A stretch of DNA of 64,000 nucleotides. It comes from Bacteroidota bacterium. Its GTDB lineage: Bacteria; Bacteroidota; Bacteroidia; Chitinophagales; Chitinophagaceae. Numbering within the stretch: the first letter of the stretch is position 1; each line of letters begins with the position of its first letter. This document shows positions 28,950 through 36,567 of this stretch, one piece after another. The stretch lies in NCBI GenBank assembly GCA_028876495.1, contig JAGWRO010000041.1:62001-126000 (forward strand), read 5' to 3'. The notes below the pieces were generated by a model, which did no database searches, had not been told where the DNA came from, and worked only from the letters and a program-made list of their open reading frames with translations. The translations under genes were made by a program, and so were the position numbers.

Positions 28950-30620
28950 TTAGTTTTCAAATTTTGTGCGATGAGTAAAATCACCAAACGATTCATTCCT
29001 CTTTCTTCCTGTTTTAAAGTCGCCAAATAATTCATCCAGTTCAGAAAGTATTTCTGCTTCGCCCAGGTTTTCTTTATAAAGCCGGTTGAGCCGGTATCCT
29101 TCATGATCGCCGCCCAAATGTAAATTATACTTCTCCAAAGCGGTTCCGATAAATCCGATTTCTGCAGCCGGAGAGCGCCCGCAACCATTGGGGCAACCGG
29201 TCATTCGCGTAATTATATTTTCATTTACGAGATCATGTTTTGTAAGCAACTTTTCAATCTTTGTGATTAACGAAGGCAAATATCTTTGAGATTCCGCAAG
29301 AGCCAAAGGGCACGTTGGTAGTGCAACACACGCAATTGAATTTTTCCTGATGGCAGATGTAGAGTCGGTGTGTTCGATAAGTTTAAATTTTTCTAAAATC
29401 GCATTGATCTCGCTCTTATCTTCTGACTTAACTTCTGTTATGATCAGATTCTGATTAACGGTAAAACGAAAAGAAGCTTTACCTGTTTTTGCTATTTCAA
29501 GTAAGGCGGATTTCATTTGCAACTCACCTTCATCAAGTACGCGGCCATTTTCTACAAAAAGTGTATAATCCCAATTGCCCGAAGGATTTTTTTTCCAGCC
29601 ATATTCATCGGTACGTTCAGTAAACGTAAAAGGTTTTATCTCTTCAAAATCAAATCCAGTGCGCTTTTCCACTTCCTCTTTAAATTTTTCAACACCCATT
29701 CTGTCAATGGTATATTTCACTCTTGCCTGCTTCCTGTCTTCCCGGTTGCCAAAATCTCTTTGAACAGTTAGTACTTCGTAAATCGCTTTAAAGGTTTTTT
29801 CACCAGCTTCTACAAATCCTAACAGGCTTCCTAAACGGGCATACGTTTCGGGATTACCATGCGTAGACGCTAATCCCCCACCAACCGCGAAATTGAATCC
29901 AAGTAATTTATTGTTTTCAACAATGGCGATCAAGCCAAGGTCATTTATAAAAACATCTGAATCATTGTTTGGTGGAATTCCAATTCCTATTTTGAATTTT
30001 CTTGGCAGATAGGCGTCGAGATATAACGGATCTTCTTCGCGTTTTTTGTCGAGAATTTTTTCTTCATCCAGCCAGATTTCGTAGTACGCGCGGGTTTTTG
30101 GTTTTAGCAAAGTGCTTATCTTATCTGCATACGAAGAAATTTCCAGGTGAACAGATAAATCGGAAGGATAAGAACTGCACGTAACATTTCTGTTGATGTC
30201 GCCGCATGTTGCAATGGAATCAAGGTGTGCCAAATGAAATGCCTTAATCGTCGGTTTAATTTTCGACTTCAACATTCCGTGTAATTGCACCGTTTGCCGT
30301 GTAGTAATCTTAATGACACCTGTTGTATTTTTTCCTGCAATTTCGTGAAGTGCGATCCATTGATCAGCCGTTAAAAATCCGCCGGGCAAACGCAATCTTA
30401 TCATGAAGGAAAACAAACGCTCCAGCTTTTTTGAAGCTCTTTCTTCGCGGCGGTCACGGTCGTCCTGTTGGTACATTCCATGAAATTTTATCAAGGCCTG
30501 GTCGTCTTCGTGGATCGCCCCGGTTAATTCATCATTCAGGCTTTCAGCAATCGTTCCGCGAAGACCGTTACTTACAATTTTTACTTTTTCTAAAGGAGAT
30601 AAATCTTTTATTTCTGACAT
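28950..30620 (-). CDS. cysI: Sulfite reductase hemoprotein subunit
   Basis: Reduces sulfite to sulfide using siroheme and a 4Fe-4S cluster, fed by CysJ. 556 residues. The duplicated nitrite/sulfite reductase fold is visible (KFHGMYQQDDRDRREERASKKLERLFSFMIRLRLPGG; ITTRQTVQLHG). The cluster ligands are in CVALPTCPLALAES and MTGCPNGCGRSPAAEIGFIG. A nitrite reductase of this family would look similar; the neighbours (cysJ, cysH, cysDN) decide for sulfite. Follows cysJ after 52 bases. Confidence 0.92.
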   Translation of the reverse strand: MSEIKDLSPLEKVKIVSNGLRGTIAESLNDELTGAIHEDDQALIKFHGMYQQDDRDRREERASKKLERLFSFMIRLRLPGGFLTADQWIALHEIAGKNTTGVIKITTRQTVQLHGMLKSKIKPTIKAFHLAHLDSIATCGDINRNVTCSSYPSDLSVHLEISSYADKISTLLKPKTRAYYEIWLDEEKILDKKREEDPLYLDAYLPRKFKIGIGIPPNNDSDVFINDLGLIAIVENNKLLGFNFAVGGGLASTHGNPETYARLGSLLGFVEAGEKTFKAIYEVLTVQRDFGNREDRKQARVKYTIDRMGVEKFKEEVEKRTGFDFEEIKPFTFTERTDEYGWKKNPSGNWDYTLFVENGRVLDEGELQMKSALLEIAKTGKASFRFTVNQNLIITEVKSEDKSEINAILEKFKLIEHTDSTSAIRKNSIACVALPTCPLALAESQRYLPSLITKIEKLLTKHDLVNENIITRMTGCPNGCGRSPAAEIGFIGTALEKYNLHLGGDHEGYRLNRLYKENLGEAEILSELDELFGDFKTGRKRNESFGDFTHRTKFEN

Positions 30621-30672: not shown

Positions 30673-32367
30673 TTAATAAACGTCGGTAACATATCTTCCT
30701 TCTTCTTTTAAATTATCCAGGTATTTTACAGCATCTTCTTTCGAACGATCTCCAAATTGTTCGATGATCTTTAAAAGCGTTTGTTCAACATCAACGCTCA
30801 TTGGCTCTTTCGCTCCGCATACATACACGTAACTTCCGGCATGCAGCCATTCAAAAAATTCTGGCCCTTTCTGCAACATTTTATGTTGAACATATATTTT
30901 TTCTTCCTGGTCTCTTGAAAATGCGGTGTCAACTTTTGTGAGAAGATTTGTTTCGACCCAGTTTTGTATTTCTGTCTGGTACAGAAAATCGGAAGTAAAA
31001 TGCTGGTCACCAAAGAAAAGCCAGTTTTTACCGGATGCGCCTGTTGCATCTCTTTCAGCGATGAACGAACGGAACGGTGCAATCCCGGTACCCGGGCCGA
31101 TCATGATCAGGTTTTTATCCTCCTGCGGCAAACGGAATTGGTGATTCGGATGAACATAAAATTTTAGTTCAGTCTCTTCATTCAGCAGCGATAAAAACTC
31201 AGAAGCAAGTCCGTATTTCACTTCGCCGTTTACCAAAAAACAATTTTTTGCAACAGTGATGTGCACTTCACCTGAATGCATTTCCGGTGACGAAGAAATA
31301 GAATAAAGCCGTGGTACAGTTGGTTCCAATTGCTTTAGTACTTCAGTAAATTGCTCCTTGTCTTTTACAGGATAAATTTTTAGAAGATCTATCAGGTCAA
31401 TTTTCGTTGAAGGGATTTCCTGTTGTACAACTGTCGCATATTTGTTTACAACGCGTTCGGGAAGGTTAATGATGTTTAACTTTTTATGCAAAAGATCGTA
31501 CACTGAAACCAGTTCGCCTTTATAATCGATATTTTTTTCGGCATCAATTCCTGTTAATGAAATAATCTTTTGAACGAGTCCTTTTTTGTTTTCAGGAATA
31601 ATCCCAATGGAATCACCAGGCGCGTATGCAACATCTTCAGATTCAATTTCTATGTGAAAAGTTTGTTTACTGCTGTCAATATCATTTAAGTTGATGTGTG
31701 TGAGAATTTTTCCTGTATATATTTTTTTCCCTGAACTTTTTTTGACAGAAGGAGTAACTGAAACTGTTTGTAAATTATTCGATGTATCGTTCAAAGAACT
31801 GATGATACGCTCAAACCATTGATCTGCTTCAGCTTCATAATCAATATCGCATTTTTGCAAAGGAGCAATTCTATTGCCTCCCAGCTTGTTTAATTGTTCA
31901 TCCACATCTTCGCCGGCCTTGCAAAAAAGTGGGTAAGAAGTGTCGCCCAAAGCCAATACACTGTATTTTAATTTCGAAAGTTTAAAACCATTTTGATGAA
32001 CATGATCATAAAACTTTTTGGCGGCGGCGGGCGGCTCACCATCACCATGAGTACTTATCACTGCTAAAAAATATTCTTCTTTTGTGAGATCGCTTAACCG
32101 GTATTGATCAAGGCTTTGAACCTTTGCGTTTACACCATGCTTTTTGGCTTTGGCTGCAAATGTTGTTGCCAGTTTTTTAGAATTCCCGGTTTCTGTTCCG
32201 TAAGTAATCGTGATTTTGTTGATTCCTTTTTTTACTTCAGGTTGAACTTCAATTGTTCTTTGTTTTGCAAGAATTCCGTTCAGATAACCATTGATCCAAA
32301 TGAGTTCATCATTGGTTGAAGTATTGATCAGTTCAAGTAAAGTATTTAATTTTTGCTCAACTAACAT
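30673..32367 (-). CDS. cysJ: Sulfite reductase flavoprotein subunit
   Basis: Transfers electrons from NADPH through FAD and FMN to CysI. 564 residues: flavodoxin domain (about 50-190) with ITYGTETGNSKKLA and STHGDGEPPAAAKKFYDHV; FAD domain (about 215-410) with PRLYSISSSPE and GLASEFLSLL; NADPH domain with MIGPGTGIAPFRSFIAER, FFGDQHFTSDFLY and YVCGAKEPMSVDVE; aromatic C-terminal end YVTDVY as usual. Overlaps the cobA-like gene by 11 bases. Confidence 0.93.
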   Translation of the reverse strand: MLVEQKLNTLLELINTSTNDELIWINGYLNGILAKQRTIEVQPEVKKGINKITITYGTETGNSKKLATTFAAKAKKHGVNAKVQSLDQYRLSDLTKEEYFLAVISTHGDGEPPAAAKKFYDHVHQNGFKLSKLKYSVLALGDTSYPLFCKAGEDVDEQLNKLGGNRIAPLQKCDIDYEAEADQWFERIISSLNDTSNNLQTVSVTPSVKKSSGKKIYTGKILTHINLNDIDSSKQTFHIEIESEDVAYAPGDSIGIIPENKKGLVQKIISLTGIDAEKNIDYKGELVSVYDLLHKKLNIINLPERVVNKYATVVQQEIPSTKIDLIDLLKIYPVKDKEQFTEVLKQLEPTVPRLYSISSSPEMHSGEVHITVAKNCFLVNGEVKYGLASEFLSLLNEETELKFYVHPNHQFRLPQEDKNLIMIGPGTGIAPFRSFIAERDATGASGKNWLFFGDQHFTSDFLYQTEIQNWVETNLLTKVDTAFSRDQEEKIYVQHKMLQKGPEFFEWLHAGSYVYVCGAKEPMSVDVEQTLLKIIEQFGDRSKEDAVKYLDNLKEEGRYVTDVY

Positions 32368-33202
32368 GCGTGTTTATTTCTGGTTGATTGAAAGAAATTT
32401 GTTGTTTTGTCATTGGTTTAAAATAATATTCATTGCTGTTGCTGTTGGTCAACCACTTGAATTTTTCGTGGAGAGAAACCACTTCACCGATAATTACCAA
32501 TGAAGGGGAAATGTATTTTTTTGCTGAAAAATCATTTTTGTAATCATACAAATTGGCAACGTGAACTTTTTGCAGAGGCGTTGTAGCCTGCTCAATTACC
32601 GCAAGCAATTTATCTTCATGAATATGATTCGCGGTTAATTTTTCGACTACTTTTTCCAGCGTTTCTGATGACATGTAAAAGACCAACGTGTCTTTTGTAT
32701 TCGCCAGTTCTTTCCAATAATCTTCTGTAACAATATCAGATTTATAATAAGTGAGAAAACGAACGGAAGTAGCATAGCCTCTTGCTGTAAGGGGAATTCC
32801 TGCAAACGCTGCTGCGCCCAGAGCTGCAGTAACGCCGGGAATGATTTCATAAGAAATATCATGTGCTACCAACGCTTCCAGCTCATCCAAAATATTGGAG
32901 AAAATGGAAACATCTCCACCTTTTAAACGCAACACTAATTTTCCCAATAAAGCATAATGAACCATTAATTCATTGATCGTTTCTTGTGGTGTGGAAATTC
33001 CGCGCCGGCATTGCTTTCCAACATGAATTATTTCAGCATCAGGCGAAACAAAATTCTTTAAAATTTGTTCGCTTACTAAGCGGTCTGTCAACACAATATC
33101 TGCTTTTTGTAAATAACGTGCGGTTTTGAGTGTAAGCAGCTCAGGATCGCCGGGACCTGCGCCGGCAATAATAACTTTTCCTTTTTTGAATGATTCAATC
33201 AT
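32357..33202 (-). CDS. cobA: Uroporphyrinogen-III C-methyltransferase
   Basis: Methylates uroporphyrinogen III to precorrin-2, the first step toward siroheme. 281 residues: SAM-binding AGAGPGDPELLTLKTARYLQKADIVLTDRLVS, VGKQCRRGISTPQETINELM, RLKGGDVSIFSN and IIPGVTAALGAAAFAGIPLTARGYATSVRFLT. With the siroheme domain at 28947 it gives most of the siroheme pathway needed by CysI. Also known as sumT. Lies between cysN and cysJ; overlaps cysJ by 11 bases. Confidence 0.92.
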   Translation of the reverse strand: MIESFKKGKVIIAGAGPGDPELLTLKTARYLQKADIVLTDRLVSEQILKNFVSPDAEIIHVGKQCRRGISTPQETINELMVHYALLGKLVLRLKGGDVSIFSNILDELEALVAHDISYEIIPGVTAALGAAAFAGIPLTARGYATSVRFLTYYKSDIVTEDYWKELANTKDTLVFYMSSETLEKVVEKLTANHIHEDKLLAVIEQATTPLQKVHVANLYDYKNDFSAKKYISPSLVIIGEVVSLHEKFKWLTNSNSNEYYFKPMTKQQISFNQPEINTHVS

Positions 33203-33252: not shown

Positions 33253-34494
33253 CTATTGAATCATGCAAGCTCCGACGGTTACGCAACTTGTTTCATCAAT
33301 TAAAATGGCGCCACCGTTTTGTCTTAATTTTTTGTAGGAATCAAAAGATACCGGCGATGATGTTTTTATGGTCGCTTTTATAATGTCATTCAACACTGCT
33401 TTTTCAGGAGAATAATTTTTTTCGAAAGTATTTACGTCGAGTTTGTATTCAATGTCTTTCACCACACTTCTCACACGATTACTATTTGTCTGCAGTAAAT
33501 ATTTATTGCCCGGTATCAAAGGTTTATTGTCCATCCAGCAAAGGAGTACTTCAAATTCCTGCTCCGTTTGCGGTTGATTATTTGTTGGAACGATCATATC
33601 ACCGCGGCTTACATCTACATCATCATCCAGGTGAAAAACTACACTTTGCATTGCGTAGGCTTCATTTACTTCTGTTTCACCGATCTCGATTGATTTAATA
33701 GTAGTTTCTGTTCCGGAAGGAAGAACCGTTACCGCATCTCCTTTTTTGTAAATGCCACTGATCACCTTTCCTGCATAGCCCCTGTAATCATGCAATTCAG
33801 GCGCCTGCGGACGAATTACATATTGAACCGAAAATCGTGGATCAGTAAGATTAACATCAGAATCAAGCTGAACATTTTCCAGGTAAGTTAATAAAGGTTC
33901 ACCTTCGTACCAGGAAAATTTTGCAGATTTATCAACAATATTATCTCCGTTCAGCGCACTGATTGGAATGTATTTTACCTCTTTTAATCCGAGTGATTTT
34001 GCCACTTGCTCATAATCGATCACAATATTATTGTACACATCTTCACTGTAATTCACCAAATCCATTTTATTAATAGCAACCACCACATGAGGAATATTAA
34101 GCAAAGATGTAATGATAGAATGTCTTCGTGTTTGCTCCACCACTCCGTTTCGCGCATCAATTAAAATAATTGCCAGTTCTGCATTTGACGCGCCGGTTAC
34201 CATGTTGCGCGTGTATTGAATATGGCCCGGTGCATCCGCGATAATGAATTTTCTTTTGTCTGTTGAAAAATATTTATAGGCAACATCAATGGTAATTCCC
34301 TGCTCGCGTTCTGCACGCAAACCATCAGTAAGAAGCGCCAGGTCAATTTCACCGTTGAGTTTATTTTTCGTTTGTTTTTCAATAGCAGCCAACTGATCAA
34401 TTAAAATCGATTTGCTGTCATATAATAATCTTCCAATCAAAGTGCTTTTACCGTCATCCACACTTCCTGCTGTTATAAATCTTAGTATGTCCAT
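33253..34494 (-). CDS. cysN: Sulfate adenylyltransferase subunit 1 (GTPase)
   Basis: GTP-hydrolysing subunit of ATP sulfurylase; with CysD makes APS from sulfate and ATP. About 413 residues: P-loop GSVDDGKSTLIGRLLYD, REQGITIDVAYKYF, DAPGHIQYTRNMVTGAS and NKMDLVNY. No APS-kinase (CysC) extension, consistent with direct reduction of APS. I chose the ATG at 34494 (MDILRFITAG); the open frame further up runs into the repeat in the spacer. Confidence 0.93.
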   Translation of the reverse strand: MDILRFITAGSVDDGKSTLIGRLLYDSKSILIDQLAAIEKQTKNKLNGEIDLALLTDGLRAEREQGITIDVAYKYFSTDKRKFIIADAPGHIQYTRNMVTGASNAELAIILIDARNGVVEQTRRHSIITSLLNIPHVVVAINKMDLVNYSEDVYNNIVIDYEQVAKSLGLKEVKYIPISALNGDNIVDKSAKFSWYEGEPLLTYLENVQLDSDVNLTDPRFSVQYVIRPQAPELHDYRGYAGKVISGIYKKGDAVTVLPSGTETTIKSIEIGETEVNEAYAMQSVVFHLDDDVDVSRGDMIVPTNNQPQTEQEFEVLLCWMDNKPLIPGNKYLLQTNSNRVRSVVKDIEYKLDVNTFEKNYSPEKAVLNDIIKATIKTSSPVSFDSYKKLRQNGGAILIDETSCVTVGACMIQ

Positions 34495-34524
34495 GTTTTC
34501 TGTTTTGTTATTGTGGTTAGTCAT

Positions 34525-34560
34525 CGGTGGTCGGACAACCGACGACCGTCTACCGACCAC
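34525..34560. repeat. GC-rich inverted and tandem repeat between cysD and cysN
   Basis: Variants of gtcggta/cggtcgtc repeated about four times. The ends gtggtcgg (34527-34534) and ccgaccac (34553-34560) are inverted, so the transcript can form a hairpin between the two coding regions. Its GC-rich composition is unlike the rest of the operon. Confidence 0.6.
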
Positions 34561-35492: not shown

Positions 35493-36218
35493 TTAAGAGG
35501 CTTGTTGATGAACATGTAAGCCGCATTCTTTTTTACTGTTATCTTCCCACCACCAGCGGCCGGCCCTGAAGTCCTCACCGGGCTTGATGGCTCTTGTGCA
35601 TGGTGCGCAACCGATACTCACAAATCCCCTGTCGTGCAAAATATTATAGGGAATATTATTTTCATTGATATAATCTTTTACTTCTTTTGTAGACCAGTGA
35701 AGGATTGGGTGATATTTTATTACCTGGTTACCTTCATCCCATTCCAACTGTGGCATATTGTGCCTGTTGGCAGAATGTTCAGCACGAAGGCCGGTTATCC
35801 AGATGACATTTCCTTTTAAAGCTCGTTTTAAAGGTTCTACTTTCCTGATATAACAACATCCTTTACGGTTTTCTACTGATTCATAAAATGAATTCGGACC
35901 CTTCTCTTCCACAAAAGGTTCCAGTAAAGAATGATCGGGATAATAACCTTTTATTTCTGTTTGAAAATGTTCATTCGTCGCGCTCCATACAGAATATGTT
36001 TCGCCAAAAAGCCTTCCGGTATCCAACGTAAAAATGCTAACCGGAATTTGATTACTCAGGACAAAATGTGTGATTACCTGGTCTTCAAAACTAAAGCTGG
36101 TAGAAAAAGTAACCTGCCCGGGAAATTGCTCTGCCAGGTTTCGAATTACTTCTGCTATTGGCAAAATATTGGCCATGTCCGCTATTTCAGTGGTATAGTT
36201 TTTTAGTGACTTTGGCAT
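35493..36218 (-). CDS. cysH: APS/PAPS reductase
   Basis: Reduces adenylylsulfate to sulfite with thioredoxin. 241 residues: PP-loop-like STSFSFEDQVITHF, TLDTGRLFGETY, and cysteines CC (121-122) and C204/C207 that bind a 4Fe-4S cluster, marking the APS-type reductase. The catalytic C232 lies in KKECGLH. It is the first long gene of the operon; a 36-base ORF with tandem Cys codons precedes it by 76 bases. Confidence 0.94.
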   Translation of the reverse strand: MPKSLKNYTTEIADMANILPIAEVIRNLAEQFPGQVTFSTSFSFEDQVITHFVLSNQIPVSIFTLDTGRLFGETYSVWSATNEHFQTEIKGYYPDHSLLEPFVEEKGPNSFYESVENRKGCCYIRKVEPLKRALKGNVIWITGLRAEHSANRHNMPQLEWDEGNQVIKYHPILHWSTKEVKDYINENNIPYNILHDRGFVSIGCAPCTRAIKPGEDFRAGRWWWEDNSKKECGLHVHQQAS

Positions 36219-36229
36219 GTTGAGTGGTA

Positions 36230-36300
36230 TGTTGAATTAAAAGTTGAGATTGGAATAATGTATAAAAGACGTTGTGTTTTCGCATAATAATTAATCAACA
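36230..36300 (-). promoter_or_regulatory. Candidate attenuator stem in the cysH leader
   Basis: On the minus strand TGTTGATTAA (36300-36291), which spans the last Cys codon and the stop of the short ORF, is complementary to TTAATTCAACA (36240-36230), 12 bases before the cysH ATG; one base bulges. A weaker alternative pair is CGTTG (36306-36302) with CAACG (36274-36270). A ribosome held on the Cys codons would mask the first stem. No GC-rich terminator is visible, so translation initiation is the more likely target. The pairing is inferred by eye. Confidence 0.4.
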
Positions 36301-36330
36301 GCAACGCATACTGTAGGAGGAAGTGCACAT
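36295..36330 (-). CDS. 11-residue cysteine-rich leader peptide ORF
   Basis: ATG TGC ACT TCC TCC TAC AGT ATG CGT TGC TGT TGA encodes MCTSSYSMRCC: three Cys in eleven residues, two of them tandem at the end before the stop. It lies between a promoter-like element (36383-36390) and cysH, in the right direction. Its location in front of a cysteine biosynthesis operon suggests a leader peptide that senses Cys-tRNA supply. Too short for homology to help. Confidence 0.5.
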   Translation of the reverse strand: MCTSSYSMRCC

Positions 36331-36382
36331 CTTCAAAAAGGAAGTTAATGAGATCATTGTGTTATTTTTGAATAGTCTACCG

Positions 36383-36390
36383 CAAAGGTA
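36383..36390 (-). promoter_or_regulatory. -7 promoter element of the cys operon
   Basis: TACCTTTG on the minus strand fits TAnnTTTG and would start a transcript with a leader of about 155 bases before cysH. The element lies within a 5-bp inverted repeat ctacc/ggtag (36377-36391), a possible operator. Confidence 0.5.
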
Positions 36391-36567
36391 GGGTAATATG
36401 ATTTAAAAAAATCACTTTTTTTAGATCCCGCGATTCAAAGAACTAAAAAAAGCCGGATTTACAGTCGTACTGCGGGTTTGGAAAATAAAAATTAATCAAT
36501 TTTCTTCGTTTGCTGTTTAGCCGGTCACTGGTATTTTCATCCTCTAAAAGGATATTATCTTTACAAA

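What the first reader, a model, noticed from the sequence alone, without database searches (positions are those of the whole stretch)
36230..36390. Possible cysteine-sensing leader peptide in front of the sulfate assimilation operon
An 11-codon ORF reading MCTSSYSMRCC lies between a TACCTTTG promoter element (36383-36390) and cysH. It has three Cys codons, two in tandem just before the stop. The last Cys codon and stop (36300-36291) can pair with 36240-36230, 12 bases before the cysH ATG. A ribosome paused at the tandem Cys codons would mask that strand; a fast one would let the stem form. Poly-Cys leader ORFs acting as cysteine attenuators are known in mycobacteria. I know of no equivalent described for this phylum, but I cannot search.
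Basis: partly seen in the sequence, partly recalled or inferred. Interest (0 to 1): 0.8.

Follow-up and report, generated by a model that had tools for sequence, protein, structure and literature searches.

The report
Cysteine-codon leader peptide before sulfate genes
In front of a bacterial operon that makes cysteine lies a tiny gene ending in cysteine codons; many relatives keep such a tiny gene at the same place, often with longer cysteine runs, which points to a switch by which the ribosome itself senses cysteine shortage.

Summary
The ORF is real and longer than reported: 20 codons (36357-36295, minus strand), MISLTSFLKMCTSSYSMRCC, 76 nt before cysH of a cysHDN-SUMT-cysJI operon, behind a TACCTTTG promoter. 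In the window's family 44 of 110 cysH loci have a short ATG ORF with at least 3 Cys among its last 8 codons within 200 nt upstream, against a shuffle mean of 0.5 and 2 of 498 other gene starts. All 77 distinct (TGY)3+ runs upstream of cysH follow an in-frame ATG; 42 abut a stop. Similar leaders precede cysS (7 of 30 loci). A cysteine-sensing leader is thus well supported by sequence. The window's copy is Cys-poor and fails the strict criterion; it counts by homology. No intrinsic terminators (0 of 68). The output step is inferred: Rho-type termination in a G-poor spacer, or, in some clades, Cys codons pairing near the start codon. Poly-Cys leaders are known in Actinobacteria; my library searches found none reported for Bacteroidota. 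No expression data exist here.

The parts
36383..36390 (-). TACCTTTG, match to the Bacteroidota sigma-A -7 box TAnnTTTG
   Evidence: Sequence; consensus TAnnTTTG from passages of PMC9723704; TANNTTTG within 80 nt upstream of the leader ATG in 57 of 68 nonredundant loci against 2.9% of random 80-nt windows
36375..36391 (-). GTAGAC element (36380-36375), also the right arm of an imperfect inverted repeat CTACC-TTTGC-GGTAG (36391-36377); putative operator overlapping the promoter
   Evidence: Sequence; GTAGAC near the leader start in 35 of 68 loci against 2.0% random, palindrome GTCYA-N5-11-RTRGAC in 23 of 68 against 0.5%; operator role inferred
36295..36357 (-). Leader ORF, 20 codons plus TGA: MISLTSFLKMCTSSYSMRCC; inner ATG at 36330
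36270..36306 (-). Local hairpin: Cys codons (36306-36302, 36300-36298) with 36274-36270 and 36277-36275; does not touch the cysH start
   Evidence: Pair probabilities 0.74-0.79, in the MFE and centroid structures; only weakly conserved in the clade (z -0.84)
36230..36300 (-).
   Evidence: Pair probabilities 0.04-0.06, duplex -5.4 kcal/mol
36219..36294 (-). 76-nt spacer between leader stop and cysH start, G-poor, no intrinsic terminator
   Evidence: Spacers of 68 loci: C 25.1%, G 11.2%, against C 19.8%, G 17.1% upstream of 232 control ORFs; terminator-like sites 0 of 68
35493..36218 (-). cysH, phosphoadenylyl/adenylyl-sulfate reductase
   Evidence: NF002537 263.8 bits over cut-off 154; PF01507
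34563..35492 (-). cysD, sulfate adenylyltransferase small subunit
   Evidence: NF003587, TIGR02039 over cut-off
33253..34560 (-). cysN, sulfate adenylyltransferase large subunit
   Evidence: TIGR02034 over cut-off
32357..33202 (-). uroporphyrinogen-III C-methyltransferase (siroheme)
   Evidence: TIGR01469 over cut-off
30673..32367 (-). cysJ-like sulfite reductase flavoprotein
   Evidence: TIGR01931 551 bits, below its cut-off of 668; flavodoxin, FAD and NAD domains
28950..30620 (-). cysI-like sulfite reductase hemoprotein
   Evidence: NF010029 748 bits over cut-off 457

Best explanation
A translated leader ORF that reads the supply of Cys-tRNA for the sulfate assimilation operon. Transcription starts just downstream of TACCTTTG and a ribosome translates the 20-codon leader. 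With enough Cys-tRNA it passes the Cys codons, stops and leaves, and the operon is damped in the G-poor, terminator-less spacer; with too little it pauses on the terminal Cys codons and the operon is expressed. Shown by sequence: the ORF, its recurrence, codon reading of the TGY runs, promoter placement, absence of intrinsic terminators. Inferred: translation, stalling, direction of the response, output step. For the window the likeliest output is Rho-type premature termination in the spacer (about 45%), then start-region occlusion or loss of ribosome hand-over (about 35% together), else something not considered. In some other clades the Cys codons can pair next to the cysH ATG, so occlusion is likelier there.
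For: Family survey: 44 of 110 cysH loci pass the leader criterion, shuffle mean 0.50, maximum 4; 2 of 498 other ORF starts. All 77 distinct (TGY)3+ runs within 200 nt of cysH have an in-frame ATG within 45 codons; 42 are directly followed by a stop and 73 have one within 8 codons, against 6 and 67 of 157 runs elsewhere in the loci. Leader presence is clustered on the cysH tree: 15 changes against 35.1 shuffled, 0 of 500 as low. Promoter element upstream of the leader in 57 of 68 loci. The same kind of leader precedes cysS in 7 of 30 family loci, plus L255 found by pattern, and cysH in 3 of 30 loci of another family of the order, one of them (G349) found by pattern. No terminators, 0 of 68 against 0.6 in shuffles; spacers C 25.1%, G 11.2%; C exceeds G in the first 45 nt in 65 of 68. 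A rho gene is present. Window leader codons 10-stop unchanged in L002, 36 of 36 nt.
Against: No expression, ribosome-profiling or 3'-end data. The window's own leader has only 3 Cys codons and fails the strict criterion; it was kept by homology. 65 of 110 family loci lack a leader by the criterion, including 32 where cysH seems to be the first gene, all 37 rows of one clade, and L083 and L092 in the window's own four-row clade. No other convincing leader in the own genome: 28 pattern hits, of which the only free short ORF lies 644 nt before a lipoprotein-like gene (this search misses CC-only leaders), and own cysS (L319) has none. Of 22 free short poly-Cys ORFs found by pattern, only 2 precede cysteine genes and 3 a PhyH gene, so the motif alone is not specific. 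Rho control rests on composition alone and might reflect plain lack of structure.
Confidence: 0.7

Rival explanations
1. Start-codon occlusion: in cysteine-rich cells the Cys codons pair with the spacer next to the cysH ATG and block initiation; a stalled ribosome frees it.
For: Across 68 loci, masking the Cys codons eases opening of the start region by 1.10 kcal/mol against 0.43 in shuffled spacers (Wilcoxon p 0.012), 12 of 68 loci at the 5% level. Hand-picked clades show stems joining Cys codons to sequence next to the ATG: L136/L149 z -9.9, L017 group -4.0, L042 group -2.3, L038/L050 -2.0. In L038/L050 a synonymous Cys codon change is matched by a change downstream (one compensatory pair, in the hairpin at the leader stop). 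CAACA occurs in 0.32 of spacers against 0.13 of shuffles.
Against: In the window: opening cost 0.4, relief 0.1, stem probability 0.04-0.06, clade z -0.84. 8 of 68 loci go the opposite way at the same level, and the opening cost itself does not differ from shuffles (p 0.71). Mean duplex z is only -0.37, 22 of 68 below -1 and 10 above +1. Other clades put the best structure elsewhere (Puia and L096 groups inside the leader; L097 group z +0.16; joint L017+L042 groups -1.1).
Confidence: 0.25
2. The TGY run is a nucleic-acid motif (protein-binding site or structural element), not codons.
For: Cys codons are the G-bearing part of an otherwise G-poor region (inference), and hairpins form on them in some clades.
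Against: All 77 runs have an in-frame ATG and 42 abut a stop, against 6 of 157 elsewhere; TGT and TGC interchange freely (313 and 155).
Confidence: 0.05
3. The leader encodes a small Cys-rich peptide that works in trans (metal or redox peptide).
For: Cys makes up 26% of residues over 68 leaders.
Against: Length and the rest of the sequence vary widely while the Cys run stays near the stop; different leaders precede cysH and cysS.
Confidence: 0.05
4. In the window the ORF is a decayed or chance remnant, and regulation is by a repressor at the GTAGAC element alone.
For: Only 3 Cys; L083 and L092 nearby lack a leader; GTAGAC in 35 of 68 loci; an Rrf2-family gene lies near leaderless cysH clusters.
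Against: Codons 10-stop are unchanged against L002 (36 of 36 nt) while cysH is at 269 of 300; same place and frame as the Cys-rich leaders of L082 and L003.
Confidence: 0.15

Closest known systems
Actinobacterial cys leader peptides (Mycobacterium, Propionibacterium acnes; cbs of Bifidobacterium longum), PMC1262725, passages seen
   Same: Short ORFs with runs of Cys codons near the stop, before cys operons; no terminators found; polyY motifs in the leader-gene interval, for which the authors suggested Rho while calling the prediction weak
   Different: Another phylum; leader sequences not alignable by eye; also before cysS here; two thirds of the spacers' letters tested for composition rather than read as motifs
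Mycobacterial Cys-rich uORFs with ribosome profiling (PMC4633059, passages seen) and poly-Cys attenuators of M. smegmatis (Canestrari et al. 2020; paper not held; title and a citing sentence seen)
   Same: Terminal Cys cluster, cysteine-metabolism genes downstream; attenuation at the level of translation according to the citing paper
   Different: Those are leaderless short ORFs; here the -7 box lies mostly 20-35 nt before the leader ATG, so the cysH leaders are not leaderless. Bacteroidia ribosomes do not use Shine-Dalgarno (PMC9976891, abstract in listing), so occlusion would have to act on the start codon region
tnaC of E. coli, Rho-dependent attenuation (recalled; named in passages of PMC1262725)
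   Same: Leader stop next to an unstructured spacer without intrinsic terminator
   Different: tnaC responds to free tryptophan by nascent-chain arrest (abstract of PMC8429421 in listing); here the cue would be lack of Cys-tRNA
Amino-acid leader peptides noted in Flavobacterium psychrophilum (PMC9723704, passages seen)
   Same: Same phylum; leader-peptide attenuation suspected before amino-acid operons and structured 5' ends before aminoacyl-tRNA synthetase genes
   Different: The passages seen name no cysteine leader; supplements were not available to me

Membership tests
Cysteine-codon leader peptide (as in Actinobacteria) | Short ORF upstream of cysteine-metabolism genes with Cys codons clustered before its stop | tested here: met
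   window copy marginal (CC before stop, 3 Cys in all)
Cysteine-codon leader peptide (as in Actinobacteria) | Conserved in place among relatives | tested here: met
   44 of 110 family loci against 0.50 in shuffles; absent by the criterion in 65 of 110
Cysteine-codon leader peptide (as in Actinobacteria) | Transcribed with, and upstream of, the operon | tested here: inconclusive
   Promoter element upstream of leader in 57 of 68, in the spacer in 4 of 68; no transcript data
Cysteine-codon leader peptide (as in Actinobacteria) | Leader translated and expression responds to cysteine | not testable with these tools
   Needs ribosome profiling and reporters
Classical transcription attenuator (trp type) | Intrinsic terminator between leader and first gene | tested here: not met
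   0 of 68 spacers, shuffle mean 0.6; a strict single-hairpin plus T-run test, so unusual terminators could be missed
Translational attenuator (start occlusion by control codons) | Control codons pair with the start region of the downstream gene | tested here: not met
   Window: relief 0.1 kcal/mol, pair probability 0.04-0.06. Met in part in other clades
Rho-dependent leader attenuator (tna type) | C-rich, G-poor spacer after the leader stop, Rho present | tested here: inconclusive
   C 25.1%, G 11.2% over 68 spacers, 65 of 68 with C over G in the first 45 nt, rho present; no functional test. Window spacer itself is only moderately skewed (0.11)
Known riboswitch or RNA family | Rfam match in the region | tested here: not met
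   0 matches at gathering score in the window

The most novel reading that the evidence does not exclude
Bacteroidota use poly-Cys leaders as a general Cys-tRNA sensor that drives sulfate assimilation and the cysteinyl-tRNA synthetase together, with an output that works without Shine-Dalgarno recognition: start-codon occlusion by the Cys codons in some lineages and Rho-type termination in a G-poor spacer in others, each lineage replacing one with the other while the sensing ORF stays.
Probability: 0.3. Interest if true: 0.75.

Novelty: new member of a known kind. Interest (0 to 1): 0.58.

Why it matters
Cysteine attenuation by leader peptides is documented, as far as I could see, in Actinobacteria. 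A recurrent version in Bacteroidota, on cysH operons and on cysS, would give a ready, reporter-testable case of ribosome-mediated control in a phylum whose ribosomes do not use Shine-Dalgarno, and would let one ask how the same sensor is coupled to different outputs. It also flags short genes that annotation leaves out.

Tried and rejected

Intrinsic terminators in the spacer: none by a strict hairpin plus T-run test (0 of 68).

Pairing of Cys codons with the spacer as a general rule: weak (mean z -0.37); 12 of 68 loci for and 8 of 68 against at the 5% level. The 15 groups were chosen by eye, so their z-scores are not corrected for choice.

Two output modes: loci with relief of 2 kcal/mol or more (18 of 68) have fewer YC dinucleotides (0.098 against 0.150, p 0.009) but no different C-G skew (p 0.31); exploratory.

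Leader hidden upstream of an earlier operon gene when cysH is not first: 0 found; 33 loci inside apparent operons had none and 9 of the scans ran into the end of the fetched stretch.

Unbiased pattern scans: TGY runs are common in other frames of coding sequence; I examined 148 loci (88 given by the scans and 60 fetched by me out of a longer, partly unlisted set), giving 22 free short ORFs, 5 of them before cysH, cysS or PhyH. In one search the search gave loci for 30 of 98 matching genomes.

PhyH gene of Flavobacterium-like genomes: a strong match in 1 of 80 genomes of that family, the query genome itself, and 3 weak ones, so its leader is a narrow case.

Known families: no NCBIfam match for five leader peptides; no Rfam match in the window. 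Literature: no Bacteroidota cysteine leader in searches; a 2010 survey of attenuation (Lopatovskaya et al., title seen in a reference list) was not available and may cover the phylum.

Full report
What is there. On the minus strand, TACCTTTG (36390-36383) is followed 25 nt later by an ATG (36357) that opens a 20-codon ORF, MISLTSFLKMCTSSYSMRCC, with TGA at 36297-36295; cysH starts 76 nt further on at 36218. The genes downstream are cysH, cysD, cysN, a uroporphyrinogen-III methyltransferase, a cysJ-like and a cysI-like gene (the cysJ-like one scores below its NCBIfam cut-off). mnmE lies upstream on the other strand.

Recurrence. I fetched 80 cysH loci from named assemblies (162 encoded a relative, the best 80 were kept) and surveyed 195 genomes of the window's family, 125 of which have a match. 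Of these I analysed 110 loci (L001, L082-L190; 29 given by the search besides L001, 80 fetched); the remaining weaker matches and a few others were not fetched. Nearest named relatives are Chitinophagaceae, Ferruginibacter and the like, so the family is probably Chitinophagaceae (inference). Criterion: an ATG ORF of 8-45 codons, at least 3 Cys among the last 8, within 200 nt of cysH. 44 of 110 pass; 100 rounds of dinucleotide shuffling give a mean of 0.50 and a maximum of 4; 2 of 498 other ORF starts in the same loci pass. The window's own ORF does not pass (2 Cys in its last 8) and, with L002, was added by hand, giving 45 of 110 and 87 of 190 over all loci; 68 remain after removing near-copies. 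The two locus sets overlap in part (for example L004 and L084). By cysH identity to the window, leaders are found in 23 of 41 loci at 65% or more, 20 of 30 at 60-65% and 2 of 39 below 60%. Named examples outside the immediate family include three Rufibacter species.

Codons, not a motif. In the 200 nt upstream of cysH there are 77 distinct (TGY)3+ runs; all 77 have an in-frame ATG within 45 codons, 42 are directly followed by a stop and 73 have one within 8 codons. Elsewhere in the loci the figures are 6 and 67 of 157. TGT and TGC interchange (313 and 155). The leaders contain hardly any Gly, Asp or Glu.

History. On a cysH tree of the 110 loci the leader needs 15 changes against 35.1 for shuffled labels (0 of 500 as low). 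One large clade of 37 rows has none; in the window's four-row clade L001 and L082 have it and L083 and L092 do not by the criterion. Thus it has been lost or gained several times. When cysH is not the first gene, I found no leader before the upstream genes (33 loci; 9 scans truncated), and 32 loci with cysH apparently first have none; several of these have weaker Cys-bearing ORFs, such as L086 and L091.

Other targets. A similar leader precedes cysS in 7 of the 30 loci taken from a survey of 60 family genomes, among them the same-genus G045 (L331, MNTRFSFLFYCCSCCP), plus L255, which I first met by pattern; the own genome's cysS (L319) has none. In most cysS cases a second TAnnTTTG-like element lies between leader and cysS by eye, so cysS may have two promoters. 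Another family of the same order has 7-Cys leaders before cysH in 3 of 30 loci, all among the 5 with cysH at 47% identity or more to the query; one of the three is the genome found by pattern. Flavobacterium-like genomes (three loci; the genus is my guess) have one 52-53 nt before a PhyH-family gene, a gene rare in that family.

Promoter and operator. TANNTTTG lies within 80 nt upstream of the leader ATG in 57 of 68 loci (random windows 2.9%), most often 20-35 nt before it, and inside the spacer in 4 of 68. GTAGAC occurs near it in 35 of 68 (random 2.0%) and a palindrome in 23 of 68 (random 0.5%); leaderless cysH loci have GTAGAC in 13 of 102 within 400 nt. An Rrf2-family gene sits near some leaderless cysH clusters (Pfam-confirmed for one, L173). 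A repressor working beside the leader is a plausible but untested addition.

Output step. No intrinsic terminators: 0 of 68 (shuffles 0.6). Spacers are rich in C and poor in G (25.1 and 11.2%) compared with control ORF upstreams (19.8 and 17.1%, n 232) and leaderless cysH upstreams (19.7 and 19.3%, n 103); the skew starts right after the leader stop and 65 of 68 have more C than G in the first 45 nt. Related species are not independent, so the p-values overstate. This is the picture described for actinobacterial cys leaders, where the authors suggested Rho but called the case weak. The own genome has rho.

Pairing of the Cys codons with the spacer is patchy. Mean duplex z is -0.37. Masking the Cys codons eases the cysH start by 1.10 kcal/mol against 0.43 in shuffles; 12 of 68 loci are beyond the 5% level in favour and 8 of 68 the other way. 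Some hand-picked clades give clear conserved stems next to the ATG (L136/L149, L017 and L042 groups, L038/L050), others fold inside the leader (Puia, L096 groups), others show nothing.

Verdict. A cysteine-codon leader ORF on the sulfate assimilation operon: likely real and regulatory, of a kind known from Actinobacteria and, in the searches I made, not reported for Bacteroidota. Nothing here shows expression, translation or a cysteine response.

Noticed in passing
36375-36391, and L013, L031, L036, L038, L050 upstream of their leaders: GTAGAC and GTCYA-N5-11-RTRGAC palindromes overlapping the leader promoter (35 and 23 of 68 loci); putative operator of an unidentified regulator
   Followed up: partly
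L173, L163, L162, L174, L190, upstream of leaderless cysH: Rrf2-family-like regulator gene on the same strand 140-886 nt upstream of cysH (Pfam-confirmed for L173); candidate for the operator above
   Followed up: partly
L331, L330, L329, L332, L327, L323, L318, L255 upstream of cysS: Poly-Cys leaders before cysteinyl-tRNA synthetase; in several the promoter-like element is within about 10 nt of the leader ATG, so they may be nearly leaderless, and another promoter-like element follows the leader
   Followed up: partly
L263, L264, L267: Nearly identical leaders ending in 6-9 Cys codons 52-53 nt before a PhyH-family gene in three Flavobacterium-like genomes; link to cysteine unknown
   Followed up: partly
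L169, L101, L150 and others: AhpC/TSA peroxiredoxin gene directly upstream of leaderless cysH (Pfam-confirmed for L169)
   Followed up: no
Leader ORFs of 68 loci: Leaders nearly lack Gly, Asp and Glu (0.4-0.6% each), as if G were kept out of the RNA except in Cys codons
   Followed up: no
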